Shown in pieces: positions 29,518 through 54,652 of a stretch of DNA of 64,000 nucleotides. The position numbers were made by a program, and so were the translations under genes. Within the stretch, counting starts at the first letter, position 1. Each line of letters starts with the position of its first letter. A model generated the notes under the pieces. That model ran no database searches, was not told the DNA's origin, and was given only the letters and a program-made list of their open reading frames with translations. The DNA is from Poritiphilus flavus (lineage in GTDB: Bacteria > Bacteroidota > Bacteroidia > Flavobacteriales > Flavobacteriaceae), in assembly GCF_009901585.1 (NCBI RefSeq), contig NZ_WXYO01000006.1:372001-436000 (forward strand), written 5' to 3'.

Positions 29518-29620
29518 TTTAGAGCTGATGAATATAGCAAATTTTAGGTATCTTAGAGCATATGGCTGACAATACTATAGGTTGGTGAATCGGCAGCTAA
29601 TTAGAATTTAATATGTGCGC

Positions 29621-30727: not shown

Positions 30728-30754
30728 AGTTTAAGCGTAAGTTCAAGATTTAAG

Positions 30755-31092: not shown

Positions 31093-31111
31093 TGTTCGCC
31101 CCCGTGAACCC

Positions 31112-32284: not shown

Positions 32285-32431
32285 GGGCTTGCGGATCTCT
32301 GGATTAAAGTTAAGGAAATATCTTTTGGATTTTGTGTTCCACTTCTGTTAAAGCAAACCGCTTTCCTCGTCTGCTAAACCTGAAATTGGACAGAACCTGA
32401 AAAAAGAATACCTTTAAGAAAATCGTAAATT

Positions 32432-32465
32432 AAACCGTGTAAAACGGTTTGAGCTAATTCTCAAA
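32432..32465. promoter_or_regulatory. two overlapping inverted repeats upstream of coxG-like gene
   Basis: AAACCG (32432-32437) and CGGTTT (32445-32450) are arms around a 7-base spacer. TTTGAG (32448-32453) and CTCAAA (32460-32465) are arms around a 6-base spacer and share three bases with the first repeat. They lie 25-58 bp before the start codon and may form an operator or alternative RNA hairpins. Confidence 0.4.
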
Positions 32466-32489
32466 TCTCTTAACTCATCACAAGTATTT

Positions 32490-32957: not shown

Positions 32958-32973
32958 TGAAAGCAGATAAGAT

Positions 32974-33561
32974 ATGAATGCTGCTATAATAATCCTCGCA
33001 GCCGGGAGTTCCAAACGAATGGGTCGTCCTAAACAATTACTTCCATGGAAGGACACCAACCTTTTAGGGCATGCTATAGACAACGCACGGAAATCGGAAG
33101 TTAAGCAAGTTTATGTGGTATTAGGAGCAAATGCGGAAACGATAAAAGGATCTGTCCGGGACGAAGAAGTACAACTGACCGTTAACCCGAATTGGGCCAA
33201 AGGTATGGGAAGTTCCATCTCCAGGGGTATGGCAAAAGCGTTGAAAAGCGAAACCAAATGGGATGCCGTATTGATCATGCTCTCAGATCAGCCCATGATA
33301 TCGGCGGATTACCTGGACAAACTAATACACACTTTTAAAGAAAAGAATTCGGGTATAATTGCGACGAAATACCCAAAAGGAATGGGTGTGCCGGCAGTTT
33401 TCAGCCAAAAATATTTTCCACATCTCCTTAAGCTGGAAGCGGATAAGGGTGCTAAATCAATTATTTTACAAAACAGCCAGGACACTTTTGCCCTGGATTC
33501 AGGAGATCTTCACCTGGATATTGATACTCCCGAGGACTACCGGAATCTTCAAAGCCTTTAA
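32974..33561 (+). CDS. mocA: MocA-like molybdenum cofactor nucleotidyltransferase
   Basis: 195 residues with IILAAGSSKRMGRPKQLLPW at the N-terminus, VLIMLSDQPMIS (metal-binding Asp) and LDIDTPEDYRNL at the C-terminus. This matches the MocA/CoxD-associated cytidylyltransferases that make molybdopterin cytosine dinucleotide, the form used by many bacterial xanthine-dehydrogenase-family enzymes. With mobA in the same cluster, both dinucleotide forms of the cofactor may be made. Confidence 0.87.
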   Translation: MNAAIIILAAGSSKRMGRPKQLLPWKDTNLLGHAIDNARKSEVKQVYVVLGANAETIKGSVRDEEVQLTVNPNWAKGMGSSISRGMAKALKSETKWDAVLIMLSDQPMISADYLDKLIHTFKEKNSGIIATKYPKGMGVPAVFSQKYFPHLLKLEADKGAKSIILQNSQDTFALDSGDLHLDIDTPEDYRNLQSL

Positions 33562-39167: not shown

Positions 39168-39884
39168 TTATAAGAAAGTGGACTCCCACGGCTTAAAGCG
39201 GATCTCAGTTTCCCTGTCCCTGATGGCCACTGCGGCCAGGTGTTCCTCATCCAGCCTGTGTGAACGCATTTGCCAGTGAACTCTTTCGTCAGCCTCCCAC
39301 AAGGTTTCCAATAGTTCGGCTTCCTGATCATCTTCCATTGAGACTGCAAAAGCGTCCAGAGGAAAACTCAAACCCGTTCCCAGGGCTTTTATGATGGCTT
39401 CTTTGCGCGTCCAACATCTGTAAAAAGCCGGGATCTGTTCATTTTTTGGGAATTTACCCAATCTTTCTACCTCTTTGGACGAGAAGAAATTCTGAGCAAT
39501 GGAAAGCGGTTGCAGTTCCGGATTGAGAAATTCAACATCCACCCCAATTTCGGTATCCCGATGAAAGCCCAGTACCGCATAGGATCCGGAATGCCCCACA
39601 TTGAATTGGATGGAGTGATTTCCGTGAAGTGAGGGTTTCTGATAGGCGCTGTATTCAAATTCAACAGCCTCGGGATCTGTGTTTAAATATTTACCCAACA
39701 ATGTGCGTAGTACTCCTCGGGTAAGTATAAAGCGATGTTGGTCTTTGGTAAATTTAAATTTTTCTGATCGTTCTACTTCTGCTTGGGATAGTGTGCTCTT
39801 GAGTAAATCTAAATGAGGCAGGGCATCATTAAAGGGCAGTATCCAGATGATTGCTATGTTTCGTTCTAGATCACTAAGCACCAC
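39168..39884 (-). CDS. Sfp-type 4'-phosphopantetheinyl transferase
   Basis: 238 residues. The PPTase motifs are IGVDVEFLNPE (metal-binding Asp) and CWTRKEAIIKALGTG (W-x-x-K-E-A), with IQFNVGHSGSYAVLGF before them. It loads phosphopantetheine onto carrier domains. It is the last gene of the minus-strand NRPS operon, 10 bp after the T-TE gene, so its targets are most likely the carrier domains at 40.8 kb, 47.4 kb and 51.6 kb. Confidence 0.93.
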   Translation of the reverse strand: MVLSDLERNIAIIWILPFNDALPHLDLLKSTLSQAEVERSEKFKFTKDQHRFILTRGVLRTLLGKYLNTDPEAVEFEYSAYQKPSLHGNHSIQFNVGHSGSYAVLGFHRDTEIGVDVEFLNPELQPLSIAQNFFSSKEVERLGKFPKNEQIPAFYRCWTRKEAIIKALGTGLSFPLDAFAVSMEDDQEAELLETLWEADERVHWQMRSHRLDEEHLAAVAIRDRETEIRFKPWESTFL

Positions 39885-39894: not shown

Positions 39895-41235
39895 TTAGGA
39901 ATTCCTTTCCAGAATACACTCTTCTATCTTTTTGGCAACGTATGGAACGTCGGATTTTTCAAATAGGGTCCTGTGATTGCCCTTAGTATGCAATACTTTA
40001 ATATCCGCGTCGATCTCCTCTTTCCAGGAATTCAGGATCATGGTATTTATCCTTTCGTCCGGTTTGTTGGTAAGTATCAATGAAATTCCTGTATTGTGAG
40101 GCTTCCAATCGTAAGCTAAACAAACTTTAACGAGATTGGTTCTGAGCTTTTCCAGGGCCTTTTGATCATCGTTGCCAAACCATTTGATAAGTGTTGGACG
40201 GATCATCCAGATCCGGTCTTCTATCATAAATCGAATGGTTTTAAACGGATTCCTGAAGAAGCGCTTTATAAAGCCTGACACCCTTAGCTTAAGCCGGTCC
40301 GGCGAATTCAGGCTCCAGGGCCGTACCATGGTATCCACAACGATCAGATTGTAATCCAGGCCTTGCCGCTTCATTTGTATGGCCATTTCATGACCCACTG
40401 CGGCACTGAAACAATATACCATCACATTATAGGGGCCAACAGGCTGTACGGATCGCATGGCACGGATGTAATCCGAAGTCATTTCTTCAATACTTCCATG
40501 CAACTGTTTTTCCCCGTAAAGCCCGGAAGGCTGTATAGCGTAAAGCGGTCTTTCCGGATCAATATGCTCAGTTAGTTTGTTGTAGAAGAAGACATGGCCT
40601 CCTCCTGCATGAATACAGAACAGAGGTGCTTTGCTGCCTTCCTTGCGAAGGGCGACAAGATAATCCCATTGTTCCTTTTCTCCTTTATGGTCCGAAATGA
40701 AAGCCGCCAGCGATTCAATGGTCTGATGATCAAACAACTGATTTGGTGATAACATGATCCCTATATCCCTTGCTTTTGCAATAAGCTGGATGCTCATCAG
40801 TGAATCTCCCCCAATATCAAAGAAGTTTTCTCTGATTCCCACGGCCTCAAGGTTGAGAACCTCTTTCCAAAGATCCGAAAGCTTTTCTTCTACCTCAGTC
40901 AATGGTCGGGACAGTTCTTCCTCCGGCCTGGTCAGCTTTTCGGATCGGATTTTTTTAAGAGCCCTTTTGTCTACCTTCCCGTTTGGTAGTAATGGGAATT
41001 CAGGGATCTCCACGATTGCCGATGGAAGCATATAATCAGGTAGACGATCTTGAATATCAGATCTTAACTCGTTAATATCCAAACCCTTATCTGCGGTAAT
41101 ATAAGCGCGAAGTCTTTTCTTATTTCCTGTTGAGGATGCCCCGTTCTCGCCGTTCTGCCACTCTTTTATGCGATAGAACAGTAATTCGCGGTCCTTGTCC
41201 GTTAAAGCTTTTAGATCTTCCAGAAATGCCCCCAC
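39895..41235 (-). CDS. NRPS fragment: end of A domain, carrier domain and thioesterase
   Basis: 446 residues from a GTG at 41235. Residues 1-40 are helical and not part of a normal A domain. Residues 41-95 are the C-terminal subdomain of an adenylation domain with the A10 motif LPNGKVDKRAL. A carrier domain follows (FFDIGGDSLMSIQ, Ser145). A type I thioesterase is at 200-446 (nucleophile Ser277 in VYCFSAAVG, Asp301, His near 425 in GNHRTLF). The A domain core lies in the upstream ORF, in another frame. The thioesterase releases the finished peptide. The nucleophile elbow lacks the first Gly of G-x-S-x-G. Confidence 0.88.
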   Translation of the reverse strand: MGAFLEDLKALTDKDRELLFYRIKEWQNGENGASSTGNKKRLRAYITADKGLDINELRSDIQDRLPDYMLPSAIVEIPEFPLLPNGKVDKRALKKIRSEKLTRPEEELSRPLTEVEEKLSDLWKEVLNLEAVGIRENFFDIGGDSLMSIQLIAKARDIGIMLSPNQLFDHQTIESLAAFISDHKGEKEQWDYLVALRKEGSKAPLFCIHAGGGHVFFYNKLTEHIDPERPLYAIQPSGLYGEKQLHGSIEEMTSDYIRAMRSVQPVGPYNVMVYCFSAAVGHEMAIQMKRQGLDYNLIVVDTMVRPWSLNSPDRLKLRVSGFIKRFFRNPFKTIRFMIEDRIWMIRPTLIKWFGNDDQKALEKLRTNLVKVCLAYDWKPHNTGISLILTNKPDERINTMILNSWKEEIDADIKVLHTKGNHRTLFEKSDVPYVAKKIEECILERNS

Positions 41236-41239
41236 AACC

Positions 41240-44179
41240 TTAGTTTTGTTTTGTTTCCGCCAGTTTTTGTAATACGAATTCCTTTTCCGCTTCGCTAAGT
41301 GAAGTTACCGATTTTAAAAGTATCAGGCGTGTTTTTTCATCCATAGACTTCATAAATTCCTCCAGGTCTTCGGCCGAAGGCACTGCCTGAACAGTACTTT
41401 CCGTATTGGGGACGTCCTCGGCCAGCACCACCGCTCCGGTAACCAACTTGTTGTTCATCAAGGCATTTTCAATCTCATCCAACTCTACTCGATATCCCCT
41501 TATTTTAACCTGCTGGTCCTTTCTGCCGATGAATTCTATTAGCCCGTCCTTTCTATATTTCCCCAGGTCACCCGTTCGGTACAGACGTTCCCCGGCAACA
41601 CCTTTGAAAGGATTCTCGACAAAAAAGTCGCTATTGAGATCATCCCTTTTCAGGTAGCCGGAGGTGAGACCGGGCCCACCTACAAAGATCTCGCCAATTC
41701 CGCCGGGAGGGACAAGGTTTAGATTTTCGTCTAATAAAACAACCTGGGCAGACGCTACCGGACGCCCAATTGGAATTTCGTTAACGGTATCTTCTTTTTT
41801 TATTTGATGAGCGATACACCATACGGTTGCCTCGGTAGGCCCGTACTCATTGTAAAGCTTAATTCCTGAGGTTTTCTCAAAATGTCGCTCAACCAGAGCT
41901 GTAGGGCAGGATTCTCCGGCCACAATGACGGACCTTAAGACAGCCAAATCCTCTGCTTTCCCGAATTCCAGCAATAATCCATATAGGGATGGCAACATAA
42001 GCGTGTGGCTTACGTCATTTTTGCGGATCAGCTCGGAAAGCCGATCAATATCCTGTTCTATTCTCTTTTCGGATACTACCAAAGTTCCACCTGTACATAA
42101 GGTCCAGAAAATACCGGCTTTGGAGCTGTCAAAGGAAACCGAAGACATCAGCAGGAATACTTCCGGGCGCTCAGGATAAAAGGTAAGTCGGCCTTCCGTA
42201 GACCGGATTATGTTCCCATGTGTTATGGGCACCCCCTTGGGTCGACCTGTGCTGCCCGAAGTAAAGATCACATAGGCAAGATCAGATGGCTTAACCTGAG
42301 GCAGATCTTGTTTTTCAAAGGAATGCTCAGCTTCGGATTGATCAGCTACAAACAACCTAACTCCGGAATTTGCAAAGCGTTCTTTAAGATCTCCTTCTAC
42401 AAGAACGTACTCACAATCCGAATCTTCCAGCATAAAACTTATTCGCTGCTCCGGATACTCAGGATCAATTGGCATATAGGCGCATCCGGCCTTTAAAATT
42501 GCCAGCAAGCCTATAACCATCTCCAGGGATCGGTCTATACACAATCCAACAATCTTGTTTTCACCCCGGGTATGTTCAAAGATGGTCAGGGCGAGTTCTG
42601 TTGCCCTTTGCTCCATTTCAGAGTAGCTGATACCGTGATCTCCGAAAACCAGAGCTTGCGCATCCGGCCTTTTACTCGCTTGTTCTTCTATGATGTCGTG
42701 TATGGCCGCGTAACTGTTGTAAGGTCCTTTTTCTTCTTTTGAGGTACTTAGAAAACTTTGCCGCTCTTTGTCGGTGAGCATGGGTATTTCGGTAAGGGAC
42801 CTTTGTGGCTTGTCAGCGATACCCTCCAGAAGCAAAGTGTAGTGATCTAAAAACTGCTCAATGGTGCTCTGTTCAAAAATGTCCGTGCTGTATTCAAAAT
42901 AGGGGGATAGTATCCCATTTTCGTTAGACATATACAGCGTAAGATCGAACTTGGACACTCCGGCGCCATAGAAAGCATGGTCTGCACTGAGACCTGCGGT
43001 AGTAAAGGGACTGTCCGGTACCGCGTGATAAATGAACATGGCCCGGAAAAATGGATTCTCGTTGAGAGAACGCTCCGGCTTCAGTTCGCGCACCAGTACC
43101 TCAAAAGGGACTTCCGCATTTGCGAAGGCCTCCAGGGTTGCTACCTTTACTTGCTGAACGAGTTCCCTAAAAGATGCGGAGGGATCAATCTTTTGACGTA
43201 TCACCACGGTCTCATCAAAAAATCCCATGACATCTTCCAATGATTTTTGATTCCTGATAGAAACCGGGGATCCCACCAAAATATCTTTTTCCGAGCTATA
43301 ACGCCAAAGCATCAGATAGAATGCGGATAACAGCAGTACATAAGGGGTCGTTCCCAGGCTTGTTGCCAGATCAAGTATTTCCTTAGACAGTTCTCTGCTC
43401 AGATCCCTGCGAATTGTATTACCTCTAAAGGTATACTGAGGTGGAGGAAGATGATCTGTGGGAAGATAAAGTTTTGGGATCTCTCCAGACAGTTTGTTTT
43501 TCCAATATGCCAGTTGGTTGGGATCAATACCCTTTTTTTGTTGCCAATAAGCGTAGTCCGTAAACTGAAGTTGGTCCTCCGGGACTACGGACTGTATTGG
43601 CAATGTTTCATCGGCGTAGAAAGCCGCGATCTGATCAGCCAAAAGGGACATAGACCATTTGTCCACGATGATGTGATGCATGGTGATGAGCAATTCGTGC
43701 TCCTCTGCACCTAATACAATCAAAGTGGCTCTTATGAGCGGGGGCTTGTCGAGATAGAAATCCGTGGCGGCTTCCTTATCCAGTATCGCTTTTCTCTCCG
43801 CTGCCTTATCGGCCTCAGCAAGTCCGGACAAATCGTGTTGAGTGACAGGAAGCGTTGTGGCATCCTGGACCTTCTGATATACGGTATTCTCCTCAAGGAA
43901 ATAGGAGGTTCTGAGCACATCATTTGCCTCATAAACCTTTTGAAGGCTTTTGAGCAATGTGGCAACCGATAGGGGCCCCTTAAAAGTAAATAGTTCCGAA
44001 AAATTATAAACCGGATTTTCAGGATATAACTGTTGCAGGAACCACAGCCTTTGCTGCCCGTAGGACGCCGGGATCCTGACGTTCTCCGGTGCCCTGGTTA
44101 TGCCAGGGGTAACGGCCGTTTCCTTTTGCCGCTCCTTCCATCGTTTTAGAATAGAACTTTCTTCCTGATGGTCTTTCAT
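41240..44179 (-). CDS. NRPS: condensation and adenylation domains (A domain incomplete)
   Basis: 979 residues. The C domain covers about 35-470 with LITMHHIIVDKWS (catalytic His169, Asp173; Lys replaces the usual Gly after Asp). The A domain runs from about 490 with AYVIFTSGSTGRPKG (636-650), YNEYGPTEATVWC and IRGYRVELDEIENAL. After the A8 region it changes into about 50 helical residues ending LSEAEKEFVLQKLAETKQN and stops, without A10 or a carrier. Both are in the next ORF 4 bp away. A pentamer repeat at the junction suggests a frameshift or slippage site. Substrate code not derived. Confidence 0.9.
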   Translation of the reverse strand: MKDHQEESSILKRWKERQKETAVTPGITRAPENVRIPASYGQQRLWFLQQLYPENPVYNFSELFTFKGPLSVATLLKSLQKVYEANDVLRTSYFLEENTVYQKVQDATTLPVTQHDLSGLAEADKAAERKAILDKEAATDFYLDKPPLIRATLIVLGAEEHELLITMHHIIVDKWSMSLLADQIAAFYADETLPIQSVVPEDQLQFTDYAYWQQKKGIDPNQLAYWKNKLSGEIPKLYLPTDHLPPPQYTFRGNTIRRDLSRELSKEILDLATSLGTTPYVLLLSAFYLMLWRYSSEKDILVGSPVSIRNQKSLEDVMGFFDETVVIRQKIDPSASFRELVQQVKVATLEAFANAEVPFEVLVRELKPERSLNENPFFRAMFIYHAVPDSPFTTAGLSADHAFYGAGVSKFDLTLYMSNENGILSPYFEYSTDIFEQSTIEQFLDHYTLLLEGIADKPQRSLTEIPMLTDKERQSFLSTSKEEKGPYNSYAAIHDIIEEQASKRPDAQALVFGDHGISYSEMEQRATELALTIFEHTRGENKIVGLCIDRSLEMVIGLLAILKAGCAYMPIDPEYPEQRISFMLEDSDCEYVLVEGDLKERFANSGVRLFVADQSEAEHSFEKQDLPQVKPSDLAYVIFTSGSTGRPKGVPITHGNIIRSTEGRLTFYPERPEVFLLMSSVSFDSSKAGIFWTLCTGGTLVVSEKRIEQDIDRLSELIRKNDVSHTLMLPSLYGLLLEFGKAEDLAVLRSVIVAGESCPTALVERHFEKTSGIKLYNEYGPTEATVWCIAHQIKKEDTVNEIPIGRPVASAQVVLLDENLNLVPPGGIGEIFVGGPGLTSGYLKRDDLNSDFFVENPFKGVAGERLYRTGDLGKYRKDGLIEFIGRKDQQVKIRGYRVELDEIENALMNNKLVTGAVVLAEDVPNTESTVQAVPSAEDLEEFMKSMDEKTRLILLKSVTSLSEAEKEFVLQKLAETKQN
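41241..41256 (-). repeat. AAAAC pentamer repeat at the NRPS frame break
   Basis: On the coding strand the stop of the C-A gene lies in GAAACAAAACAAAACTAAGG, nearly three AAAAC units. Adding one 5-bp unit shifts the frame by +2 and joins the C-A frame to the A10-T-TE frame without any stop. Confidence 0.7.
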
Positions 44180-44192: not shown

Positions 44193-45449
44193 CTATCTAA
44201 GTCCTAGCTTAACTGCAATCTTATATCCTTCACGCCTTAAGTAATCGTCTAGTGGCAGATCAATATCAAATGCCCGTTCAACAAACCAGTAGAGCGAAAT
44301 AATTATAAGCATTATTGAGATGAACACCAAAAGTTTGGGATACAGTTTCAGTTTCCGAATAAGGTAAAGCACTGGGAAGATCATGGCAATAATAGCCACC
44401 TGACCCAATTCAACACCAATATTAAAGCCGAGTAATGAGAGTGTCAGATTTTCTCCTTTAAACCCGAGATCAGCCAAAACGCTGGCAAAGCCAAAACCGT
44501 GGAATAATCCAAAAACAAAGGCAATTACCCAATCCCTACCCTTAAAAATAGGCTTGATATTGTGATAAGCCGCCAGGCCGATGGAGAAAGCGATAATAGT
44601 TTCCACCAGGCGAGAGGGTAAATTGATGATGTTCAGAGAGGCCAGGCTCAAAGTGATGGTATGGGCGATAGTAAAAAAGGTGATCACCTTAATGATATAT
44701 ATGAAAGCAGGCCGAAACTTAGGTACCGGATCCCATCCCCAAATATCAAATTTAGGTTTGCTCGTTTCTGATTCAACCGCCAGTTTTGGTTCCCGTCTTC
44801 GTACAACTGAGGGAAGGATAAGGGCGACCAGGAAAAGAATGTGATCCAACCCGATCCAAATATGCCAGACACCTTGTCTCACCATGGCTTCAAAGCCTTT
44901 CCAAAGGGATGTGTCCGTCAGAGACATGGTTTTCGTACTGTTACCCTCGGTAAAGTCCAGGGCAAATATGGTTTCATTGTTGATAAGACCGGCTTTCCAG
45001 TTGTATTCCATGCCCAAAAGGTTCATTTGCTTGGGATCGTTCTCTAAGAAAGCCGAATAGGTCACTGTCAGTTCATCCGGAAGTTTTTCTACATTTTCCA
45101 GTTTGAAATGAAAAAGCAGGAAATCCCCGTCCTTGACAAAGATCTCTCCACGTTCTCCGGTAAAAACGATCTTATGCTCCCCATAAACTGAAGAAAAGGC
45201 GGTGTTTGCCAGGAAATAGGCTTCGATCTGAGCTAAATAGGGCGCCAGTTCCTCTGGTGTAGGGTGTAAGGGTAAGGAGAGGCCCAGGGTTTCGTTCAGG
45301 TCCGTTATCTTGACATCAAACCTGCCTTCTATACCCGCGGTTTCATAAACCCTTAAATAAATATAGCTCTGATCAATACTGTGGCTATAAGCTGCATGAG
45401 CAGACAATAAGAAAAAAATACAAAGGAATAATCGTGAGATATGCTTCAT
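44193..45449 (-). CDS. HupE/UreJ-like membrane protein with extracytoplasmic domain
   Basis: ATG at 45449 is preferred to one 24 bp upstream, because it directly precedes a signal peptide (LFLCIFFLLSAHAAYSHS). About 418 residues. An N-terminal beta-rich domain of about 170 residues is followed by six or seven membrane helices with the HupE/UreJ motifs WIGLDHILFLVALILP, FTIAHTITLSLA, FGLFHGFGFASVLADLG and GFNIGVELGQ. Family members are associated with nickel, cobalt or other metal uptake. It is the promoter-proximal gene of the minus-strand NRPS operon, linking the locus to metals. Confidence 0.85.
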   Translation of the reverse strand: MKHISRLFLCIFFLLSAHAAYSHSIDQSYIYLRVYETAGIEGRFDVKITDLNETLGLSLPLHPTPEELAPYLAQIEAYFLANTAFSSVYGEHKIVFTGERGEIFVKDGDFLLFHFKLENVEKLPDELTVTYSAFLENDPKQMNLLGMEYNWKAGLINNETIFALDFTEGNSTKTMSLTDTSLWKGFEAMVRQGVWHIWIGLDHILFLVALILPSVVRRREPKLAVESETSKPKFDIWGWDPVPKFRPAFIYIIKVITFFTIAHTITLSLASLNIINLPSRLVETIIAFSIGLAAYHNIKPIFKGRDWVIAFVFGLFHGFGFASVLADLGFKGENLTLSLLGFNIGVELGQVAIIAMIFPVLYLIRKLKLYPKLLVFISIMLIIISLYWFVERAFDIDLPLDDYLRREGYKIAVKLGLR

Positions 45450-45645
45450 AGAATTTTTGTTAAAAGTAAGCAAAACTTTTGCTGATCCGCGATTGTCGAA
45501 TGAAGGTTAGGTGGTTTAAAATATTATCAGGAAATTGACGCAACTCTTTGCAAGATTACGAATCTTTAAAAATATACCTGGCGAATCCGCATATTTTCTC
45601 GAAATTTTCGTTAAATATGCTACAATTTTTGAAAAAACCTCATTT

Positions 45646-45790: not shown

Positions 45791-47380
45791 GTGGACATGA
45801 TATATAATTTGGCACAAATCATTGAGCGGTCTGCTGCTCAATTCCCTAATAAAGAAGCATTTCGATGCCTCGATAATGCTATCACCTATTCAAAACTTGA
45901 GGAGCAATCCAATCAGTTGGCTTCCTACCTGATAGATGCCGGATTGCAAAAAGGGGACAGGGTCGGGATCTTTATGAACCGATGCCTGGAAACCGCTACA
46001 GCCGTACACGGCGTCTTTAAGGCCGGTGGGGCTTTTGTCCCTATTAATCCGTTTATGCCGGTTGCCAGGGTCGTTACTATTATGGCTGATTGTAACATAC
46101 AACATCTGCTGACAACCCCTGCCCAAAAACCAAAGATTGACAAAATTGCCGCCGAAGCGCCCTTTTTGACTTCGGTTGTAGGCCTGGCGGAGGTAGAAAG
46201 CCCCGATGTAAAGGCCTATACCTGGGAAACGGTATTTTCAAGGTCCCTGGAAGCTTTCACACCTCCTAATATCCTGGAGCAGGATCTCGCGTTTATTTTA
46301 TATACCTCGGGTTCTACGGGAACTCCAAAAGGTATTATGCATACGCATTACAGTGGTTTAAGCCTTGCCAGACTGGCGGCGGATCTCCATGATTTTAGTA
46401 GCGATGACCGGGTGGGTAATTTTGCGCCCCTGCATTTTGATCCCTCTACCTTCGGCTATTTTGCGGCTCCTATGGTCGGGGCTACTACTGTTATTATTCC
46501 GGATGCTCATTTAAGACTACCGGTAAGCCTTGCGGCACTGGTAGCAAAAGAAAAAATTACCGTATGGTATTCTGTACCGCTTACCCTGGTACAGGTTCTG
46601 TTACATGGAGAGATAGACGAGCACGACTTTAGCAGCCTGCGCTGGGTGCTATTCATAGGGGAGGTATTCCCGGTAAAACACCTCAGGGAATTGATGATCA
46701 AATGGCCGCACGCGAAGTTTAATAATCTTTACGGGCCGGCAGAAACCGTCGCCTGTACCTATTATATTATTCCTGAACCACCCGAAGTGGATGAAATGGT
46801 CCCTATTGGAACGGTTTGGGGAAATACGGACTATATGATTATAGACTCCGCTGACCAGGAAGTGACAAAGGGTGAGGTAGGGGAACTCGTAGTAAGAACT
46901 GCCACACTTATGGCGGGATACTGGAACAATAAGGAACTTACGGAAAGGTCCTTTTTGAGGCTTCCTCAAGCTGCCGGTTACGATCATATCTTCTACCGCA
47001 CAGGAGACCAGGTAAAGGAGAACGAAAAGGGAGAATTGCTCTTCCTGGGTAGGAATGACCGTCAGATAAAACTACGGGGATATCGTATTGAACTGGACGA
47101 GATAGAAGTGACCCTTCTTAAAAATGACCAGGTTGAAGAGGCCGCGGTTGTCGTTGTGGAAACTGCTGAGGACGAAAGGGAACTGGAAGCTGTGGTCCGT
47201 TTGGTGGCCGGTTCAGGTATGCATGCGGATGAGATCCTGAACTTCAGCAAAACCTTCCTGCCTTCTTATGCTGTACCCAGTTCGCTTAGGATTATGGAGG
47301 ACTTCCCGAGAACAGGCTCAGGAAAAATTGACAGGAACGAAATAATAAAAATATTGGAGGCCCAGGTCTATGACGGATAA
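45791..47380 (+). CDS. free-standing NRPS adenylation protein
   Basis: 529 residues from GTG (an ATG two codons later is also possible). A complete A domain: LAFILYTSGSTGTPKG (A3), NLYGPAETVACTYY (A5), FYRTGDQVKENEKGELLFLG (A7), LRGYRIELDEIE (A8) and GSGKIDRNEIIK (A10). It activates an amino or aryl acid as adenylate and should load the free carrier protein, whose gene overlaps its end by 11 bp. It is likely the loading module of the assembly line. Substrate is not deduced. Confidence 0.92.
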   Translation: MDMIYNLAQIIERSAAQFPNKEAFRCLDNAITYSKLEEQSNQLASYLIDAGLQKGDRVGIFMNRCLETATAVHGVFKAGGAFVPINPFMPVARVVTIMADCNIQHLLTTPAQKPKIDKIAAEAPFLTSVVGLAEVESPDVKAYTWETVFSRSLEAFTPPNILEQDLAFILYTSGSTGTPKGIMHTHYSGLSLARLAADLHDFSSDDRVGNFAPLHFDPSTFGYFAAPMVGATTVIIPDAHLRLPVSLAALVAKEKITVWYSVPLTLVQVLLHGEIDEHDFSSLRWVLFIGEVFPVKHLRELMIKWPHAKFNNLYGPAETVACTYYIIPEPPEVDEMVPIGTVWGNTDYMIIDSADQEVTKGEVGELVVRTATLMAGYWNNKELTERSFLRLPQAAGYDHIFYRTGDQVKENEKGELLFLGRNDRQIKLRGYRIELDEIEVTLLKNDQVEEAAVVVVETAEDERELEAVVRLVAGSGMHADEILNFSKTFLPSYAVPSSLRIMEDFPRTGSGKIDRNEIIKILEAQVYDG

Positions 47381-47615
47381 AATAGCCAAATATATTAAGG
47401 AGGAGGTGGCCAATGAACCCCTTACAGAGCTTGATATGCAAGAGGATCTCCTGGGAAGCGGTATCATAGATTCTGTTGGAATGATGAAATTGGTACTATT
47501 CCTGGAAAACGAATTTGACGTTAAAATTGGACCTTCAGATATGACAGTTGAAAATTTTCTTAACTTAAATAGTATAGAAAGTTTTCTTTTGAAACGAAAA
47601 CAAGAGACTGGTTGA
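47370..47615 (+). CDS. free-standing acyl/peptidyl carrier protein
   Basis: 81 residues with the phosphopantetheine site GSGIIDSVGMMKLV (Ser35) and LFLENEFDVKIGPSDM, the usual four-helix carrier pattern. Translationally coupled to the adenylation gene. It should carry the starter unit to the condensation domain of the next protein. Confidence 0.92.
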   Translation: MTDKIAKYIKEEVANEPLTELDMQEDLLGSGIIDSVGMMKLVLFLENEFDVKIGPSDMTVENFLNLNSIESFLLKRKQETG

Positions 47616-47640: not shown

Positions 47641-50600
47641 ATGAAAAGAGCCCTAACAAGTAACCAACAAACCCTCTGGATCGGACAAAAGATGCACCCT
47701 GATGTTCCGATTCACAATACCGCATATGCTTTTACCATAGCAGCTGAATTAGACCTAAAGGCATTTAGAAAGGCCTTCCAAAAGCTGGTATACGAGGTAG
47801 AGGCTTTCCGCACGGTTTTCAAGGAAGAAGATGGCGTACCGATGCAATCGGTTAAAAGTGATATGTCCTACGAAATGGAGTGCATTGACCTCTCGTTGGA
47901 AACAGACCAAGCGGTTCAATTATGGCTGGAAAAACGCAGTCAACGGCTGCTTGAACTGGATAACAGCGCTTTTGATTCGGCCCTGATCCGAAGGGGTGAA
48001 CGTAAGTTTATCTGGTTCCTTAATATGCATCACCTTATTACGGACGCGGTTTCACTAGCCACCATCTTTCAGAATACAGCGGATTATTACAAAGCGTATC
48101 TAAACCGTACCGAATTACCTAAAGACATTAATCCAGCCCCTTATTCTGAATATATTGATGATCTAGTTTCCCAAAAAAACGGAAAGAGAGAGAACAACAA
48201 TACCGGGCTTTTGTCGGAAAAGCTTGAAGGCTTAGGTCAGTTGCCCAGGTACTACGGGGTGAAAAAAGAAGGTAGCGCTACCCGGGCCTCACGGATCTCT
48301 ATTCCGCTTAGCAAAGAAAAGTCAGATAAGATCAGAGCGCTTATTACTGATCCTGATCTCAGAAGCTGGTCGGAGCATTTATCGCTCTTCAACTTCTTTA
48401 CCAGCCTCTTCTTTGTATTCCTTTACAGGACAAGTGGCAAGCAGCAGATCGCCATAGGTGCTCCTTCGCACAATAGGGGTACAAGAAAGTTCGCCAGAAC
48501 GGTCGGCTACTTTGTTCAGGTATTCCCTTTGATAAATGAACTTCAGGCATCTGATACCTTCAGGACGCTGATAAAGCGGAATGCACTGGAAATAAACGAC
48601 TATTTGCGATATAGCACTCAGGGAGAATCGAATTACAAACTGAATCAGAGTTTCAATGCGGTGCTAAACTATATCAATACCGAATTCGGCGACTTTTGCG
48701 ATTTTGAAACCAAAACAAGCTGGATACACCCGGGTCATATGGATGAGCAGCATCAGATCCGCTGCCATGTGATGGATTTTCAGTCCAGCGGAGCTTTTGA
48801 GATCGCGATAGACCTGAATGACGAGGTGTTTAGCAAAGACTTACGTGAAAAGGTTTCGGTCCATTTCACCAAATTACTCGATGCCTTCATTACAGACCTG
48901 GATACCCCCATATTAAAACCGGAATTGATCACCGCGGACGAAAAAAGTGTACTGATCCCAAAGCCTGAAAAGGGCTGGAAGTTCGTTCCAACGATAGAAA
49001 GATTTCATCAAACCGCAAGGAAATTCCCGGAATCCACCGCCTTGCGATTAGGCTCGGAGACCATAGATTACAGGGATCTGGAAAGGAAAGTAGGAGCCCT
49101 GGCCTTAAAGTTAAAGGAACAAGGGGTTAAACCCGGGGATGCCATTGGGGTCTGCTTTTTCCGAAGCCCTGAATACATTATAAGTATTCTGGCCGTGATG
49201 AAATTGGGAGCTGTTTTTGTTCCCATTGCTTCGGACCTGCCGGAACATCGGGTCAAATATATGGTAGAGACAGCCGATTGCGTTCTTTTGCTGACAAATG
49301 AATTACTGGCCAGGAAGCTATCCATCATATCCAAACCAACCATAGAAATTGATCACGGATCCTTAGAGATTTCTGAGGAAGATCTGGCTGCGGAAACCTA
49401 TTTCTCGCCTAAGGAAGAAGATCCGGCCTATATCATATTTACCTCCGGATCTACCGGAGATCCAAAGGGAACGGTTATCCCTAACCTGGCGCTTAGCAAC
49501 TATAGTGGTTGGGCTGCTTCCTATTATCTGGAAGATCGGCCTTCGAGTTTTCCGCTCTTTACATCAGTTGGGTTCGATCTGACGATTACATCTACTTTTT
49601 TGCCGCTTCTGACGGGTGGGGAGATTGTGATCTATAAGGAGAATGAAAGGGGTCCGGATATGTCTATTCTTCAGGTAATTGAGGACAATATCGTTGAAGC
49701 CATTAAGCTAACCCCCTCTCACCTTAACCTGATCTCGGGAATAGAACTTGTTGAATCCAAGATCCGCACTGTGATAATTGGAGGTGAAGACCTGAGGACA
49801 GACGTGGCACTTAAGATACATGAGGAACTCGATGGAAAAGCTACGGTTTATAATGAATATGGCCCCACGGAGGCTACTGTGGGCTGTGTGGTTTCCAGAT
49901 TCGACCCTAAAAAGCACAACAGAACGTCTGTTCCCATAGGCCAACCTATTCGAAATATGCAGGTATTCATACTCGATCCTTATGGCAACCTGAACCCGGC
50001 AGGAGTAGCCGGGGAACTGTTCCTGGGAGGTCATGGTATAGCGAAGGGATATCTGAACAATTCAAAATTAAACCAGGAAAAATTCGCCGTCCGAGAGGGT
50101 ATATCTGAGAACCGGCTTTATCAAACCGGTGATCTGGCGCGATGGAATAGCGATGGGGAATTGGAATTCCTGGGTCGGATAGACGAACAGGTTAAGCTTA
50201 AAGGTTATAGAATTGAATTGACGGATATTGAGGCCAATCTCAATGAACACGAGGCGGTAAACAGCGCCGCGGTGGTTCTTTTGGATCCTTCGTCTCGCAA
50301 TACCGAGGATAAGGTGTTAAACTGTGCGGAATGTGGTTTGCCATCTAACTATCCGAATGCGGATTTTGACGATGAAGGAGTATGCCACCTTTGTAACTCC
50401 TTTAAAGGATACCGTCATGAGGCGGCGAAGTATTTTAAGACCGAGGAGGATCTTAAGCAGTTACTCTCGGCACCCAAAGCCAAAGGGGTAGACTACGATT
50501 GCCTGACCTTGCTCAGCGGAGGAAAAGACAGTACCTATATATTGGCCCGATTGGTAAATATGGGCCTTAAAGTATTGGCTTTCACCCTGGACAACGGCTA

Positions 50601-51768
50601 CATTTCAGATCAGGCGAAGAACAACATAAACAAGATCGTAAAGAAACTGGGGGTTGACCATATTTACGGGGAAACACCGCATATGAATAAGGTATTTGTG
50701 GACAGTCTGCACCGGCATGCCAACGTTTGTAACGGCTGCTTTAAGGTGATCTATACCCTTAGCACACAGATCGCCCTGGAGCGCAATATTCCATTCGTGG
50801 TTACAGGCCTGTCTCGTGGTCAGTTTTTTGAAACCCGACTTACGGAGGAGCTCTTTTGGGAAAGCTCACGGGATACTGCTACAATTGACGAAACCATACT
50901 GGAGGCCCGTAAACTCTACCATCAGGAAGAGGACGCGGTTAAAAACCTTATGGATGTTTCCATGTTCCAGGACCCGGCTACTTTTGAGAAAGTGCAGTTT
51001 GTTGATTTTTATCGCTATAGCGATGTCAGCCTGACGGAGATGCTGCATTTTCTAAAAGAAAAAGTGGGTTGGGAAAGACCTACGGATACCGGAAGGTCTA
51101 CGAACTGCCTGATCAACCAGGTGGGGATCTACGTGCATAAGAAAGAAAAAGGATACAGCAATTACTCTTTCCCATATAGTTGGGATGTCCGACTTGGGCA
51201 CAAGACCCGGGCGGAGACCCTGGAAGAGATCAATGAATACATTGATGAGAAAGAAGTAAAGCGTATTATGAAGGAGATCGGCTATCTGGATAGTCCTTAT
51301 GCAGCTGAAGAAAGAAGAAAGTTAGTAGGATATTATACCTCGGACGATAAAGTTACGGACAGGGAGCTTTATACCTTCCTAAGGGGCCGGCTGCCATCTT
51401 ATATGGTCCCTTCGGTATATAAACGACTGGAGAGTCTGCCACTTACTTCTAATGGAAAGGTAGACCGTTTGGCCTTACAGAGTTTCAACGAGGCACAATT
51501 GGAAATGGAAACGGCCTACGTGGCTCCCCGAAATGAGATTGAAGAACTCCTGGAAGGCATATGGAAGGAGGTATTGCAACTAAAGAAGATCGGAGTACAC
51601 GATAACTTCATCACCCTTGGCGGGCACTCCCTGGCGGCGATCAGGGTGACTACCAGGATAAACGAAGAACTCGGGATGGGTCTGGGTCTGAATAAGATCT
51701 TTGAACTTCCCACAATTGCCGAATATGCGGCATTTATAGAAGCCACGATAGTTGAGCTTCTGGAATAA
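47641..51768 (+). CDS. NRPS C-A-T protein with a PP-loop ATPase (amidotransferase-like) inserted in the A domain
   Basis: 1375 residues. The C domain is about 1-430 (NMHHLITDAVS, His131 and Asp135). The A domain starts about 460 with AYIIFTSGSTGDPKG (from 596), YNEYGPTEATVGC (737) and LKGYRIELTDIEANL (855). At about 885-1225 lies an insert of about 340 residues: Cys pairs CAEC (895-898) and VCHLC, PP-loop LSGGKDSTYIL (958-968), TLDNGYISDQAKNN, and NVCNGCFKVIYTLS. This matches N-acetyl sugar amidotransferases (WbpG/PseA) and the AANH superfamily. A10 (SNGKVDRLAL, about 1270) and the carrier Ser1330 (LGGHSLAAIR) follow. The insert may thiolate or amidinate the bound substrate; inferred. Confidence 0.92.
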   Translation: MKRALTSNQQTLWIGQKMHPDVPIHNTAYAFTIAAELDLKAFRKAFQKLVYEVEAFRTVFKEEDGVPMQSVKSDMSYEMECIDLSLETDQAVQLWLEKRSQRLLELDNSAFDSALIRRGERKFIWFLNMHHLITDAVSLATIFQNTADYYKAYLNRTELPKDINPAPYSEYIDDLVSQKNGKRENNNTGLLSEKLEGLGQLPRYYGVKKEGSATRASRISIPLSKEKSDKIRALITDPDLRSWSEHLSLFNFFTSLFFVFLYRTSGKQQIAIGAPSHNRGTRKFARTVGYFVQVFPLINELQASDTFRTLIKRNALEINDYLRYSTQGESNYKLNQSFNAVLNYINTEFGDFCDFETKTSWIHPGHMDEQHQIRCHVMDFQSSGAFEIAIDLNDEVFSKDLREKVSVHFTKLLDAFITDLDTPILKPELITADEKSVLIPKPEKGWKFVPTIERFHQTARKFPESTALRLGSETIDYRDLERKVGALALKLKEQGVKPGDAIGVCFFRSPEYIISILAVMKLGAVFVPIASDLPEHRVKYMVETADCVLLLTNELLARKLSIISKPTIEIDHGSLEISEEDLAAETYFSPKEEDPAYIIFTSGSTGDPKGTVIPNLALSNYSGWAASYYLEDRPSSFPLFTSVGFDLTITSTFLPLLTGGEIVIYKENERGPDMSILQVIEDNIVEAIKLTPSHLNLISGIELVESKIRTVIIGGEDLRTDVALKIHEELDGKATVYNEYGPTEATVGCVVSRFDPKKHNRTSVPIGQPIRNMQVFILDPYGNLNPAGVAGELFLGGHGIAKGYLNNSKLNQEKFAVREGISENRLYQTGDLARWNSDGELEFLGRIDEQVKLKGYRIELTDIEANLNEHEAVNSAAVVLLDPSSRNTEDKVLNCAECGLPSNYPNADFDDEGVCHLCNSFKGYRHEAAKYFKTEEDLKQLLSAPKAKGVDYDCLTLLSGGKDSTYILARLVNMGLKVLAFTLDNGYISDQAKNNINKIVKKLGVDHIYGETPHMNKVFVDSLHRHANVCNGCFKVIYTLSTQIALERNIPFVVTGLSRGQFFETRLTEELFWESSRDTATIDETILEARKLYHQEEDAVKNLMDVSMFQDPATFEKVQFVDFYRYSDVSLTEMLHFLKEKVGWERPTDTGRSTNCLINQVGIYVHKKEKGYSNYSFPYSWDVRLGHKTRAETLEEINEYIDEKEVKRIMKEIGYLDSPYAAEERRKLVGYYTSDDKVTDRELYTFLRGRLPSYMVPSVYKRLESLPLTSNGKVDRLALQSFNEAQLEMETAYVAPRNEIEELLEGIWKEVLQLKKIGVHDNFITLGGHSLAAIRVTTRINEELGMGLGLNKIFELPTIAEYAAFIEATIVELLE

Positions 51769-51806: not shown

Positions 51807-52244
51807 ATGAAAATGAAACCGCGATTTGCTGGAATTTTGGCGCTCTGCATGGCTTTCTATTATTTGATAAGCCCATTGCATCAGCAGATCGGAGGTATAG
51901 TTCATCAGATCTCCCATGGACTTGAAGCCCCTCATACCGTTATTGTCCATGATATGGACCAAAAAGAACATGCCTATCAAATGCATCGGGTAGGGCAAGC
52001 TGCGGATCATGAGCATGCCTTTATCGATTTCTTCCAGACCCTTTTGGAGGGCTCAGATTGGAATGACTTTCCTCCCTCCGAATCCCTGGAGTTCACCCTG
52101 AAACTGGACAAGCACTTTACCAAACAGGCATTTTACTTTGCTTCAAGCAATTTAATACAGCCTGACTCTGTTAATTCTTACCTGAGTTCGGAACTTTTAT
52201 CCGGATTTCCATTTTCCATTTTCTATCCCCCGCAAAACTCATAA
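51807..52244 (+). CDS. His-rich exported protein of unknown function
   Basis: 145 residues. A hydrophobic N-terminal stretch (FAGILALCMAFYYLISPL) acts as signal or anchor. Residues about 25-75 hold many His: LHQQIGGIVHQISH, HTVIVHDMDQKEH, MHRVG and ADHEHAF. This is a likely metal-binding region. The gene lies between the C-A-T NRPS gene (39-bp gap) and the TonB receptor, so a periplasmic metal-handling role beside the receptor is reasonable. No family name recognised. Confidence 0.78.
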   Translation: MKMKPRFAGILALCMAFYYLISPLHQQIGGIVHQISHGLEAPHTVIVHDMDQKEHAYQMHRVGQAADHEHAFIDFFQTLLEGSDWNDFPPSESLEFTLKLDKHFTKQAFYFASSNLIQPDSVNSYLSSELLSGFPFSIFYPPQNS

Positions 52245-52405: not shown

Positions 52406-54652
52406 ATGATACGAGTTATACTGAATAAAATAGGGCTAAGCATCATAGCCATACTGGTATTTGGAACTGCATATGGTCACGAACTGAACGGAACCATAGT
52501 ATCAGAAGACAATGTTCCTCTTGAAGGAGTAGGAGTGTTCAACCGGACTACCGGCGGATATACCTATTCAAATATTTCAGGATATTTTGAACTGGACGAT
52601 ATATCAGTTGGAGATGTCATCTTCTTTTCAAGTCTGGGTTATGAGAACCAGGAAATTACGATCACAGAGGGCCAGCTAGATGCTACCATCACCATTGTAC
52701 TTAAAGAATCTGCGGTATCCCTGGATCAGGTGGTGCTGGTCTCCAAAGTGAACGCCTTGAGCCAGTTTGTAGATGTGGATGTAAAGGCCAATCCTGTAAA
52801 ATCTTCTCAGGAGGTCCTGCGAAGAGTACCGGGGCTGATCATCGGCCAGCATGCCGGTGGAGGTAAGGCAGAACAGATCTTCCTCAGGGGTTTTGATATC
52901 GATCACGGAACAGACATTGCCATCAATGTAGACGGTATGCCTGTAAACATGGTATCTCACGCCCACGGACAGGGATATGCGGATATGCACTTCATCATCC
53001 CTGAGACCATAGACAATATCGACTTTGGAAAAGGGCCTTATTACGCCAATCAGGGTAATTTCAATACGGCTGGCTATGTGAACCTGAAAACCAGGGAGAC
53101 CATTGATCAGAATCTGGTTTCCATTGAAGCCGGTCAGTTTAACACCTTGCGAGCCCTGAGTATGCTAAAAATTACAGAAGGTGATAAGAGCAATGCCTAT
53201 CTGGCTTCCGAAATGGTACTCACAGATGGGGTTTTTGAATCTCCTCAGAATTTTAACCGGTTAAACATCATGGGGCGTTACAACTTCAATAACCGGGAGG
53301 ATGAGAAGCTGACCATTTCACTTTCGCATTTTCAAAGCAAATGGGACGCTTCAGGGCAGATCCCGCAGAGAGCGGTAGACCAGGGTTTGATCAGCCGTTT
53401 TGGTGCTATTGACGATACGGAAGGTGGAAGTACAAGTCGTTCCAACATCTGGGTCAATCACACCAAACAGCTGGACGAGCATAGAACCATCAAGTCTCAT
53501 GCCTATGTTTCGGCATATGATTTTGAGCTGTTCTCGAATTTTACGTTTTTCCTTGAAGATCCGGTCAACGCGGATCAGATACAGCAGTTTGAGGACAGGG
53601 TCATTATCGGGGCGGAAACGGCTTACAACCGCTCATTTCATCTGGAAGACCACTCTTCCCAGCTGAATTATACTGCCGGTGTAGGTTTCAGGTATGACGA
53701 TGTAAACAATAACCAGCTTTCAAGAACACAAAACCGCTCAACCTTGTTAGAACGTCTTGCTTTTGGTAATGTGGATGAAGTAAATGCCTATGCCTTCGCT
53801 GAGGCCACCTATAAGAAGGGTAAGTGGACGTTTAACCCAGGGCTCCGGATGGACTATTTCAGGTTTGATTATCAGGACCAGATCCCGGAACTGTATACCA
53901 GCCTGAGTGAAACCAAAGTTTTCTTTGGACCTAAATTCAACACCATTTTCGCAGCTTCGGATAACCTTCAGTTATTCGCTAAAACAGGAATTGGTTTTCA
54001 TTCCAATGACACTCGTGTTGTAGTGGCAAACAGCGGTGAGGATATCCTTCCAGGGGCTTTTGGAGCGGACCTTGGCGCTATCGTAAAACCCACGGACAGG
54101 TTGGTGATAAACGCGGCGCTGTGGGCTTTGTACTTACAACAGGAATTTGTGTATGTCGGAGATGCCGGCATCGTGGAACCCAGTGGTAAAACCCGTCGGG
54201 TAGGGGCAGACTTTGGCCTCCGCTATCAACTGACGGATTGGTTGTATTTCAACGGAGACATCAACTATACCTATGCCCGTAGTACTGAAGAAGCAGATGG
54301 AGAGGATTTCATTCCCCTGGCCCCGGACCTGACGTCTGCAGGAGGATTCGCAGTAAGAGATCTTGGGAATTTTTCAGGTGGGATCAACTACAGATATATC
54401 AAGGACAGACCGGCCAATGAAGACAATTCCATTGTAGCGGAAGGCTATTTTGTCACCGATCTAAACCTGAATTACAGCGTAAACAACTGGACTTTCGGTG
54501 TGATCGTAGAAAATCTCTTTGATATAGACTGGAATGAGACCCAATTTGCTACGGAAAGTCGTCTTTTTAATGAACCTACTTCCTTCGAAGAGATTCATTT
54601 TACACCTGGAGTACCATTTTTTGTGAGAGGAAAATTATCTGTAAACTTTTAG
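52406..54652 (+). CDS. TonB-dependent outer-membrane receptor
   Basis: 748 residues. A signal peptide (LSIIAILVFGTAYG) is followed by a carboxypeptidase-regulatory-like domain (about 24-105), then a plug with EVLRRVPGLIIGQHAGGGK and VDGMPVNMVSHAHGQGYADM. A 22-strand-type barrel ends in a terminal Phe (FFVRGKLSVNF). The His cluster in the plug (HAHGQGYADMHF) suggests a metal or metal complex as substrate. Lying at the end of the NRPS operon, it may import the metal-loaded peptide product; this is inferred. Confidence 0.92.
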   Translation: MIRVILNKIGLSIIAILVFGTAYGHELNGTIVSEDNVPLEGVGVFNRTTGGYTYSNISGYFELDDISVGDVIFFSSLGYENQEITITEGQLDATITIVLKESAVSLDQVVLVSKVNALSQFVDVDVKANPVKSSQEVLRRVPGLIIGQHAGGGKAEQIFLRGFDIDHGTDIAINVDGMPVNMVSHAHGQGYADMHFIIPETIDNIDFGKGPYYANQGNFNTAGYVNLKTRETIDQNLVSIEAGQFNTLRALSMLKITEGDKSNAYLASEMVLTDGVFESPQNFNRLNIMGRYNFNNREDEKLTISLSHFQSKWDASGQIPQRAVDQGLISRFGAIDDTEGGSTSRSNIWVNHTKQLDEHRTIKSHAYVSAYDFELFSNFTFFLEDPVNADQIQQFEDRVIIGAETAYNRSFHLEDHSSQLNYTAGVGFRYDDVNNNQLSRTQNRSTLLERLAFGNVDEVNAYAFAEATYKKGKWTFNPGLRMDYFRFDYQDQIPELYTSLSETKVFFGPKFNTIFAASDNLQLFAKTGIGFHSNDTRVVVANSGEDILPGAFGADLGAIVKPTDRLVINAALWALYLQQEFVYVGDAGIVEPSGKTRRVGADFGLRYQLTDWLYFNGDINYTYARSTEEADGEDFIPLAPDLTSAGGFAVRDLGNFSGGINYRYIKDRPANEDNSIVAEGYFVTDLNLNYSVNNWTFGVIVENLFDIDWNETQFATESRLFNEPTSFEEIHFTPGVPFFVRGKLSVNF

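What the first reader, a model, noticed from the sequence alone, without database searches (positions are those of the whole stretch)
50290..51330. NRPS adenylation domain interrupted by a PP-loop ATPase/amidotransferase-like module
Seen: between the A8 region (LKGYRIELTDIEANL) and A10 (SNGKVDRLAL) of the C-A-T protein lie about 340 residues with CAEC/VCHLC pairs, a PP-loop (LSGGKDSTYIL) and a second NVCNGC pair. Known: interrupted A domains usually carry methyltransferase, ketoreductase or oxidase inserts at this hinge; WbpG/PseA enzymes form amidines on sugars, and AANH-superfamily enzymes are implicated in thioamide formation in other pathways. Inference: this is an on-line amidine- or thioamide-forming A domain, a kind of interrupted domain I do not recall being described.
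Basis: partly seen in the sequence, partly recalled or inferred. Interest (0 to 1): 0.92.

Follow-up and report, generated by a model that had tools for sequence, protein, structure and literature searches.

The report
Asparagine-modifying domain inside a peptide synthetase
A peptide-making enzyme of a flavobacterium-like bacterium carries an extra ATP-using domain inside its asparagine-loading domain; domains of this rare but already described kind turn asparagine into a nitrile or an isomer in antibiotic pathways, and here it sits in a gene cluster of unknown product that also encodes an uptake receptor.

Summary
Residues 891-1225 of the 1375-aa C-A-T protein (50311-51315, +) are a PP-loop/AANH domain between A8 and A9 of an otherwise complete adenylation domain. 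It is no assembly error: 23 of 299 sampled genomes of the family carry it in single frames, and relatives occur in Saprospiraceae, Acidimicrobiia and Rhodobacterales. It is the most conserved part of the A-T region.

The kind is not new. Gross et al. 2021 (PMC7966384) describe the 'AMDH' domain of CysH (cystobactamid) and its AlbIV (albicidin) homologue: 38 kDa, SGGKD, inserted in L-Asn A domains. It dehydrates carrier-bound Asn to beta-cyanoalanine or isomerises it to isoasparagine. The code here, DLTKIGEVGK, is one reported as compatible with beta-cyanoalanine. The genome has no PF02668 (CysJ-type) hydroxylase, so nitrile formation is my first choice; amidine or thioamide is less likely.

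Possibly new: the cluster (predicted Pro/pyrrole-Asn*-His, with TonB receptor and HupE), and an invariant CxxC...C triad (45 of 45 inserts) laid out like the [4Fe-4S] site of CtaC/LarE, which might explain why CysH is brown. Against a sulfur reading, several standalone relatives also carry the triad, two of them beside HisH/HisF. Direct comparison with CysH was not possible.

The parts
47641..51768 (+). C-A(insert)-T NRPS module; A-domain code DLTKIGEVGK (Asn / beta-cyanoalanine type)
50311..51315 (+). inserted PP-loop/AANH domain (AMDH type), aa 891-1225
   Evidence: TIGR03573 E 3.3e-41; model of the domain pLDDT 85.6, pTM 0.85; VIA Z 19.8 to 8wex; limits
50323..50394 (+). four-Cys zinc-like motif C895/C898/C915/C918
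   Evidence: invariant in 34 of 34 and 45 of 45
50509..50535 (+). PP-loop LLSGGKDST (SGGKDS)
   Evidence: SGGKDS in 45 of 45 inserts
50722..50739 (+). NVCNGC, first two Cys of the CxxC...C triad (C1030, C1033)
   Evidence: 45 of 45; aligned to a CxxC of the LarE chain 8cnz
51097..51108 (+). STNC, third Cys of the triad (C1156)
   Evidence: 45 of 45
47370..47615 (+). free-standing carrier protein (PCP), 81 aa
   Evidence: PF00550 E 2.3e-5, 25.0 bits, cut-off 20.8; a carrier-like ORF, judged by eye, directly upstream of the module in 7 of 8 checked relatives that lack a standalone A there
45791..47380 (+). free-standing adenylation enzyme, presumed starter loader (Pro-like code DPFYLILAC)
41240..44179 (-). 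third module, C and A core; code DSAMIAEVW (His-like)
39895..41235 (-). third module continued: A C-terminal part (by eye), T, TE
39168..39884 (-). 4'-phosphopantetheinyl transferase
44193..45473 (-). HupE/UreJ_2 membrane protein
   Evidence: PF13795 E 4.5e-47; relative in 28 of 35 loci
51807..52244 (+). small His-containing protein, no family found
   Evidence: relative in 24 of 35 loci
52406..54652 (+). TonB-dependent receptor
   Evidence: PF07715, PF13715; relative in 29 of 35 loci
37809..39149 (+). glycosyltransferase (EryCIII-like C-terminal domain), possibly part of the cluster
   Evidence: relative in 8 of 35 loci, many of which end before it

Best explanation
The insert is an AMDH-type (aminomutase / amide dehydratase) PP-loop domain inside an L-asparagine adenylation domain. 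Likely order of events: a free-standing adenylation enzyme loads a proline-like starter on a free-standing carrier; the A domain of this module loads Asn on its own T domain; the insert binds ATP, activates the side-chain amide oxygen of T-bound Asn (or starter-Asn) and expels it, giving beta-cyanoalanine, with isoasparagine as the alternative; the C domain joins starter and Asn*; a third, His-type module with TE finishes a tripeptide that may be glycosylated and taken up through the TonB receptor. Shown here: domain order, intact motifs, Asn-type code, conservation, cluster. Taken from the literature: the chemistry of AMDH domains. Inferred: that this one does the same, the activation step, and the product.
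For: PMC7966384 (abstract, parts 1-3 of 8 of section 3, passages): CysH's inserted 38-kDa domain with SGGKD turns T-bound Asn into beta-cyanoalanine in vitro; deleting it abolishes isoasparagine and cyanoalanine products; [quoted passage not shown] PMC12283262 (passages, section 12): DLTKIGEVGK is 'also compatible with' beta-cyanoalanine, which was found only in albicidin, whose module holds a 342-aa AANH-like insertion. Here the code is DLTKIGEVGK in 30 of 34 proteins, DLS... in 3, one V>I, and DLTK[IVM]GEV[GA] in 10 of 10 from further loci (nine positions). Insert of 335 aa, SGGKDS in 45 of 45. No PF02668 hit in the own genome, 0 of 1, E. coli control positive; [quoted passage not shown] A core and A C-terminal part match thiolation-state A domains around the insert (5es8 Z 49.8, 479 aligned; 5t3d Z 49.1, 495 aligned).
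Against: No sequence of CysH or AlbIV was reachable, so direct homology to AMDH was not measured. The closest named family by sequence and the best fold match are sugar amidotransferases, and the triad layout matches sulfur transferases. Without CysJ, the cystobactamid pathway in vivo gave unmodified Asn and isoasparagine products as well as the nitrile, so the nitrile is not assured. One relative with the same triad is not in an Asn A domain: L134 is fused before a C domain, and the A-T beside it has code DARHASLMT. Here the module is an elongation C-A-T, while CysH is a stand-alone module, so the amide acted on could differ. That CysJ belongs to PF02668 is inferred from its likeness to SyrP and recall.
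Confidence: 0.68

Rival explanations
1. Thioamide synthetase in cis: the insert activates an amide (backbone amide of starter-Asn, or the Asn side chain) and a [4Fe-4S]-bound sulfide replaces oxygen, as CtaC does on carrier-bound peptides; the N,S-chelating product would be a metallophore.
For: CxxC...C triad plus PP-loop in 45 of 45 inserts, the layout of CtaC D77/S78, C154/C157, C284 (PMC6772006, parts 1-2 of 3) and of the CXXC-C motif of [4Fe-4S] LarE (PMC9283937, passages); LarE CxxC aligns; fold matches to TtuA, NcsA and LarE at Z about 11; TonB receptor in 29 of 35 loci.
Against: Asn A domains with this kind of insert have a published nitrile/isoasparagine outcome. The triad occurs in standalone relatives too (L062, L080, L081, L083, L084, L093, perhaps L094), and L062 and L080 sit beside HisH/HisF-type genes, so it does not mark sulfur transfer. 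The fold is nearer to 8wex than to any listed sulfur transferase (Z 19.8 against about 11).
Confidence: 0.15
2. Isoasparagine is the main product (aminomutase mode) rather than the nitrile.
For: The same domain does both in CysH, and isoasparagine products still formed without CysJ.
Against: In CysH isomerisation was much less efficient without hydroxylation by CysJ; no PF02668 hit in this genome.
Confidence: 0.1
3. Amidine-forming domain (NH for O) as in sugar amidotransferases WbpG/PseA, using ammonia.
For: Closest named family TIGR03573 and best fold match 8wex, N-acetyl sugar amidotransferase (Z 19.8, 301 aligned).
Against: Score below the curated cut-off (141.9 against 203.2); no glutaminase/HisF-type partner among 20 window proteins scanned; clade separate from the standalone WbuX-like proteins (100/100).
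Confidence: 0.04

Closest known systems
AMDH domain of CysH (cystobactamid) and the homologous domain of AlbIV (albicidin)
   Same: AANH/PP-loop insert of about 340 aa with SGGKD inside an L-Asn A domain; code DLTKIGEVGK reported as compatible with beta-cyanoalanine
   Different: CysH and AlbIV are stand-alone modules; here the domain sits in a C-A-T elongation module after a starter carrier, in a Pro/pyrrole-Asn-His type cluster with TonB receptor and HupE; no PF02668 hydroxylase. Sequences not compared
CtaC, thioamide synthetase of closthioamide
   Same: PP-loop plus CxxC...C triad by published positions; acts on carrier-bound amides
   Different: free-standing protein, not inserted in an A domain; sequence not compared here
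N-acetyl sugar amidotransferase (WbuX/TIGR03573; PDB 8wex)
   Same: fold, N-terminal four-Cys motif, PP-loop; some members also carry the triad
   Different: insert scores below the family cut-off; 30 of 38 distinct standalone relatives examined (under 450 aa) lack the triad; no HisH/HisF found here
[4Fe-4S] LarE / TtuA / NcsA sulfur transferases
   Same: PP-loop core and CxxC...C motif
   Different: fold match weaker (Z about 11 against 19.8); other substrates
A8-A9 interrupted A domains with methyltransferase, oxidase, monooxygenase or ketoreductase inserts
   Same: insertion site
   Different: insert type

Membership tests
AMDH-interrupted Asn A domain (CysH/AlbIV kind) | domain inserted within an A domain | tested here: met
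AMDH-interrupted Asn A domain (CysH/AlbIV kind) | A domain of L-Asn specificity | tested here: met
   predicted from code only: DLTKIGEVGK in 30 of 34, near variants in 4; 10 of 10 further loci near-identical; code from PMC12283262 passages
AMDH-interrupted Asn A domain (CysH/AlbIV kind) | size about 38 kDa / 342 aa and SGGKD motif | tested here: met
   335 aa, SGGKDS 45 of 45
AMDH-interrupted Asn A domain (CysH/AlbIV kind) | sequence homology to CysH/AlbIV and the seven core motifs | not tested
AMDH-interrupted Asn A domain (CysH/AlbIV kind) | amide dehydratase / aminomutase activity | not testable with these tools
   needs protein and MS
A8-A9 interrupted A domain | insert between motifs A8 and A9, other core motifs intact | tested here: met
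   A3 at 599, NEYGPTE 738, A7 827, A8 845, A10 1271
N-acetyl sugar amidotransferase TIGR03573 | score over the curated cut-off of 203.2 bits | tested here: not met
   141.9 bits
N-acetyl sugar amidotransferase TIGR03573 | HisH/HisF-type partner genes nearby | tested here: not met
   none among 20 window proteins scanned; the rest of the window and genome was not scanned for them
CtaC-type thioamide synthetase | PP-loop and CxxC...C cluster motif | tested here: met
   positions from PMC6772006; motif not exclusive to sulfur transferases
CtaC-type thioamide synthetase | sequence homology to CtaC | not tested
CtaC-type thioamide synthetase | sulfur insertion into carrier-bound amide | not testable with these tools
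   needs anaerobic assay

The most novel reading that the evidence does not exclude
Inserts of this AMDH kind are three-Cys [4Fe-4S] PP-loop enzymes. The invariant CxxC...C triad would hold a cluster with one open iron, which would account for the brown colour of CysH left unexplained in 2021. The domain would then dehydrate or isomerise Asn either by Lewis-acid chemistry at the open iron or through a transient thioamide that loses sulfide to give the nitrile; in this cluster it might even stop at the thioamide and make an N,S-chelating metallophore.
Probability: 0.4. Interest if true: 0.68.

Novelty: new member of a known kind. Interest (0 to 1): 0.45.

Why it matters
It extends a rare type of in-line amide chemistry to a conserved cluster family, of no product known to me, found in three phyla and in several cultured flavobacteria. 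If the Cys triad binds a cluster, it gives a testable answer to how AMDH domains turn an amide into a nitrile or an isomer. The TonB receptor and His-type third module suggest a product that is taken back up, perhaps with metal.

Tried and rejected
Assembly or gene-fusion error: rejected, the insert lies in single open frames in all 23 positive genomes of the family sample and in other phyla. Degenerate insert: rejected, it is the most conserved part of the A-T region and the PP-loop is invariant.

Triad as proof of sulfur transfer: tried and given up. L062 (345 bits, over the TIGR03573 cut-off) and L080 carry it, and the ORFs beside them are GATase and His_biosynth proteins. L081 carries it beside an amidase, with no GATase among the 4 of its 6 neighbouring ORFs scanned. 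L094's motif depends on the alignment (TA, CC). So of 38 distinct standalone relatives under 450 aa, 30 lack the triad and 8 (with L135) carry or may carry it. After this check I lowered the thioamide odds from 0.18 to 0.15 and the novel case from 0.42 to 0.40, and raised isoasparagine from 0.08 to 0.10 because the paper reports isoasparagine and unmodified products without CysJ.

In the tree, L134 and L135 lie inside the insert clade, but on long branches that may attract each other.

Metal-responsive operator upstream of HupE: no clear shared palindrome in 29 regions; shared words were mostly A-rich and in at most 13 of 29; one mixed word (CATCGAAA-like, 7-10 of 29) was not followed. HupE in PMC12914433, PMC10957091, PMC4176598 (term searches): no occurrence; the metal is unassigned.

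Literature. Passages of PMC11355689 and PMC8097286 name methyltransferase, oxidase, ketoreductase and, in the second, monooxygenase inserts; PMC8949500 names methyltransferases. 'Amidotransferase' does not occur in PMC8097286, PMC8949500 or PMC11253843 and was not looked for in PMC11355689. Searches for 'N-acetyl sugar amidotransferase' with NRPS (0 papers) and for 'interrupted adenylation domain' with amidotransferase and nonribosomal peptide synthetase (0) missed the AMDH paper; the precedent was found through the code.

Rows dropped: L056 and L058 (contig ends) from the 36 proteins, leaving 34; L038 and L048 further left out of the A-T alignment (32 rows), on which the percentages rest; standalone proteins over 450 aa (L073, L074, L085-L087, L099), all without the triad; L048 and L079 (same protein as L062) from the tree. 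The first comparison with standalone relatives is void for loci read on the wrong strand and was redone.
Full report
What is there. The ORF at 47641-51768 (+) encodes a 1375-residue C-A-T NRPS module. Between A8 (aa 845-860) and the A C-terminal part (from aa 1226) lie 335 residues, aa 891-1225, nt 50311-51315. They carry a four-Cys motif, the PP-loop SGGKDS, NVCNGC and STNC. The A3, A5-region, A7, A8 and A10 motifs are present. The insert hits WbuX TIGR03573 at E 3.3e-41 but stays under that family's cut-off. Modelled alone from 34 sequences it gives pLDDT 85.6 and pTM 0.85. Its best solved match is 8wex, an N-acetyl sugar amidotransferase (Z 19.8, 301 aligned, 4.4 A), followed by NAD synthetase, TtuA, NcsA, LarE and the nitrile synthetase ArtA at Z 11-12. 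In the A-T model (pLDDT 81.8, pTM 0.52) the A core and C-terminal part align with complete A domains around the insert.

It is real and widespread. 23 of 299 sampled genomes of the family, own genome included, have it in single frames. At E under 1e-100 it is in 2 of 395 genomes of the phylum sample, own genome included (37 of 395 have some match at 1e-15, the rest weak), and in 8 of 296 of a class sample around an Acidimicrobiia genome (21 of 296 with some match). A genome-contig scan gave 35 loci, titled Flavobacteriaceae and relatives, Saprospiraceae and Acidimicrobiia. Two Rhodobacterales plasmids have it; in one, no gene is listed under the match, probably because the gene runs across the start of the circular record. 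Identity to the window over 31 relatives averages 73% in the insert, 45% in the A core, 48% in the A C-terminal part and 66% in T. 45 of 45 inserts keep the four-Cys motif, SGGKDS and the CxxC...C triad. The inserts form a clade apart from the standalone WbuX-like proteins (100/100), with the two Streptomyces relatives L134 and L135 nested inside on long branches.

What it acts on. The specificity code of the interrupted A domain is DLTKIGEVGK in 30 of 34 proteins, with a T-to-S change in 3 and a V-to-I change in 1; 10 of 10 further loci read DLTK[IVM]GEV[GA] (nine positions). PMC12283262 (passages and section 12) says, under Asp/Asn domains, that DLTKIGEVGK is also compatible with beta-cyanoalanine, and that this residue was found only in albicidin, whose module has an AANH-like insertion of 342 residues. 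The substrate is therefore Asn by prediction, not by assay.

What is known. Gross et al. 2021 (PMC7966384; abstract, parts 1-3 of 8 of section 3, and passages) named the domain AMDH. In CysH it is a 38-kDa insert, 69% identical to the domain of AlbIV. It turns carrier-bound Asn into beta-cyanoalanine in vitro. Its deletion abolishes isoasparagine and nitrile products. With the hydroxylase gene cysJ deleted, Asn, isoasparagine and nitrile products all appear, the nitrile in substantial amounts. Homologues were all found inside Asn A domains, none linked to a known metabolite. The mechanism was left open and CysH was dark brown; the authors found no CxxCxxxC motif. The present insert meets every feature of that description that could be tested; the sequences themselves could not be compared.

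Which reaction here. The own genome (completeness 100) has no PF02668 hit, so no CysJ-type hydroxylase if CysJ is of that family (inferred from its likeness to SyrP, and recall). The paper says that dehydration mainly occurs in the absence of CysJ, so the nitrile is my first choice, with isoasparagine possible. Amidine formation lacks a partner: no glutaminase or HisF-type domain among 20 window proteins scanned. Thioamide formation cannot be excluded. The triad and PP-loop have the layout of CtaC (D77/S78, C154/C157, C284; PMC6772006, parts 1-2 of 3; here D963/S964, C1030/C1033, C1156) and of the CXXC-C motif of [4Fe-4S] LarE (PMC9283937, passages). Against using the triad as a marker of sulfur chemistry: of 38 distinct standalone relatives under 450 aa, 8 carry or may carry it, and L062 and L080 have GATase and His_biosynth genes directly beside them, the layout of sugar amidotransferases.

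The cluster. Neighbouring genes recur. Of 35 loci, 29 show a relative of the third NRPS, 28 HupE, 29 the TonB receptor, 24 the small protein, 19 the free-standing A enzyme, 10 an acyl-CoA dehydrogenase, 9 an ornithine cyclodeaminase-like gene and 8 the glycosyltransferase; many loci end before one or more of these. The dehydrogenase of L039 has PigA and RedW, prolyl-carrier dehydrogenases, as its best NCBIfam models, below their cut-offs. One free-standing A enzyme (L138) has code DLLYLALVC, which I recall as that of the proline ligases of pyrrole pathways; the window's own is DPFYLILAC and no dehydrogenase lies beside it. The third module has code DSAMIAEVW, close to DSALIAEVWK, given for His in PMC12283262. 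A product of the type Pro or pyrrole - modified Asn - His is inferred. HupE, free-standing A, carrier and dehydrogenase genes also accompany the module in Rhodobacterales, and HupE-like ORFs do so in 4 loci of the class sample (L137, L138, L141, L143). Uptake of the product, perhaps as a metal complex, is a guess from the receptor; no regulator site was found. I found no paper on this cluster in the searches made, which cover only the held open-access library.

Verdict. A well-preserved new member of a known, rare kind of interrupted A domain, in a cluster family of unknown product. The open and testable point is the Cys triad and what it does.

Noticed in passing
39895-44179 (-): The A domain of the third module is split over two ORFs at the same A8-A9 loop; both halves end or begin with an LSxxEKxxLLxxL-like stretch. 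In L042-L044 a 262-263 aa ORF, methyltransferase-like by weak Pfam hits (L042 only was scanned), lies between the halves; in L029 the domain is fused. It looks like an A domain assembled in trans.
   Followed up: partly
L134:16062-20112 (Streptomyces plasmid): A relative of the insert (40% identical, triad kept) is fused in front of a C domain, behind an uninterrupted A-T protein with a non-Asn code and an asnB gene.
   Followed up: partly
L135:11824-12972 (Streptomyces plasmid): A free-standing relative with the CxxC...C triad, near an acyl carrier protein and a beta-ketoacyl synthase gene; candidate carrier-dependent amide modifier.
   Followed up: no
L144, L145 (around L062 and L080): WbuX-like proteins beside HisH/HisF-type genes that carry the CxxC...C triad, which most standalone relatives examined lack.
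   Followed up: partly
L083, L084, L093: WbuX-like frames of 412-427 aa with the four-Cys, CxxC and IEC motifs but no SGGxDS loop.
   Followed up: no
29615-33561: XdhC, aminotransferase class V, CoxG and MobA-like NTP transferase genes, suggesting a molybdenum hydroxylase accessory set.
   Followed up: no
51807-52244 (+): Small protein rich in His with no family found, next to the TonB receptor; relatives in 24 of 35 loci.
   Followed up: no
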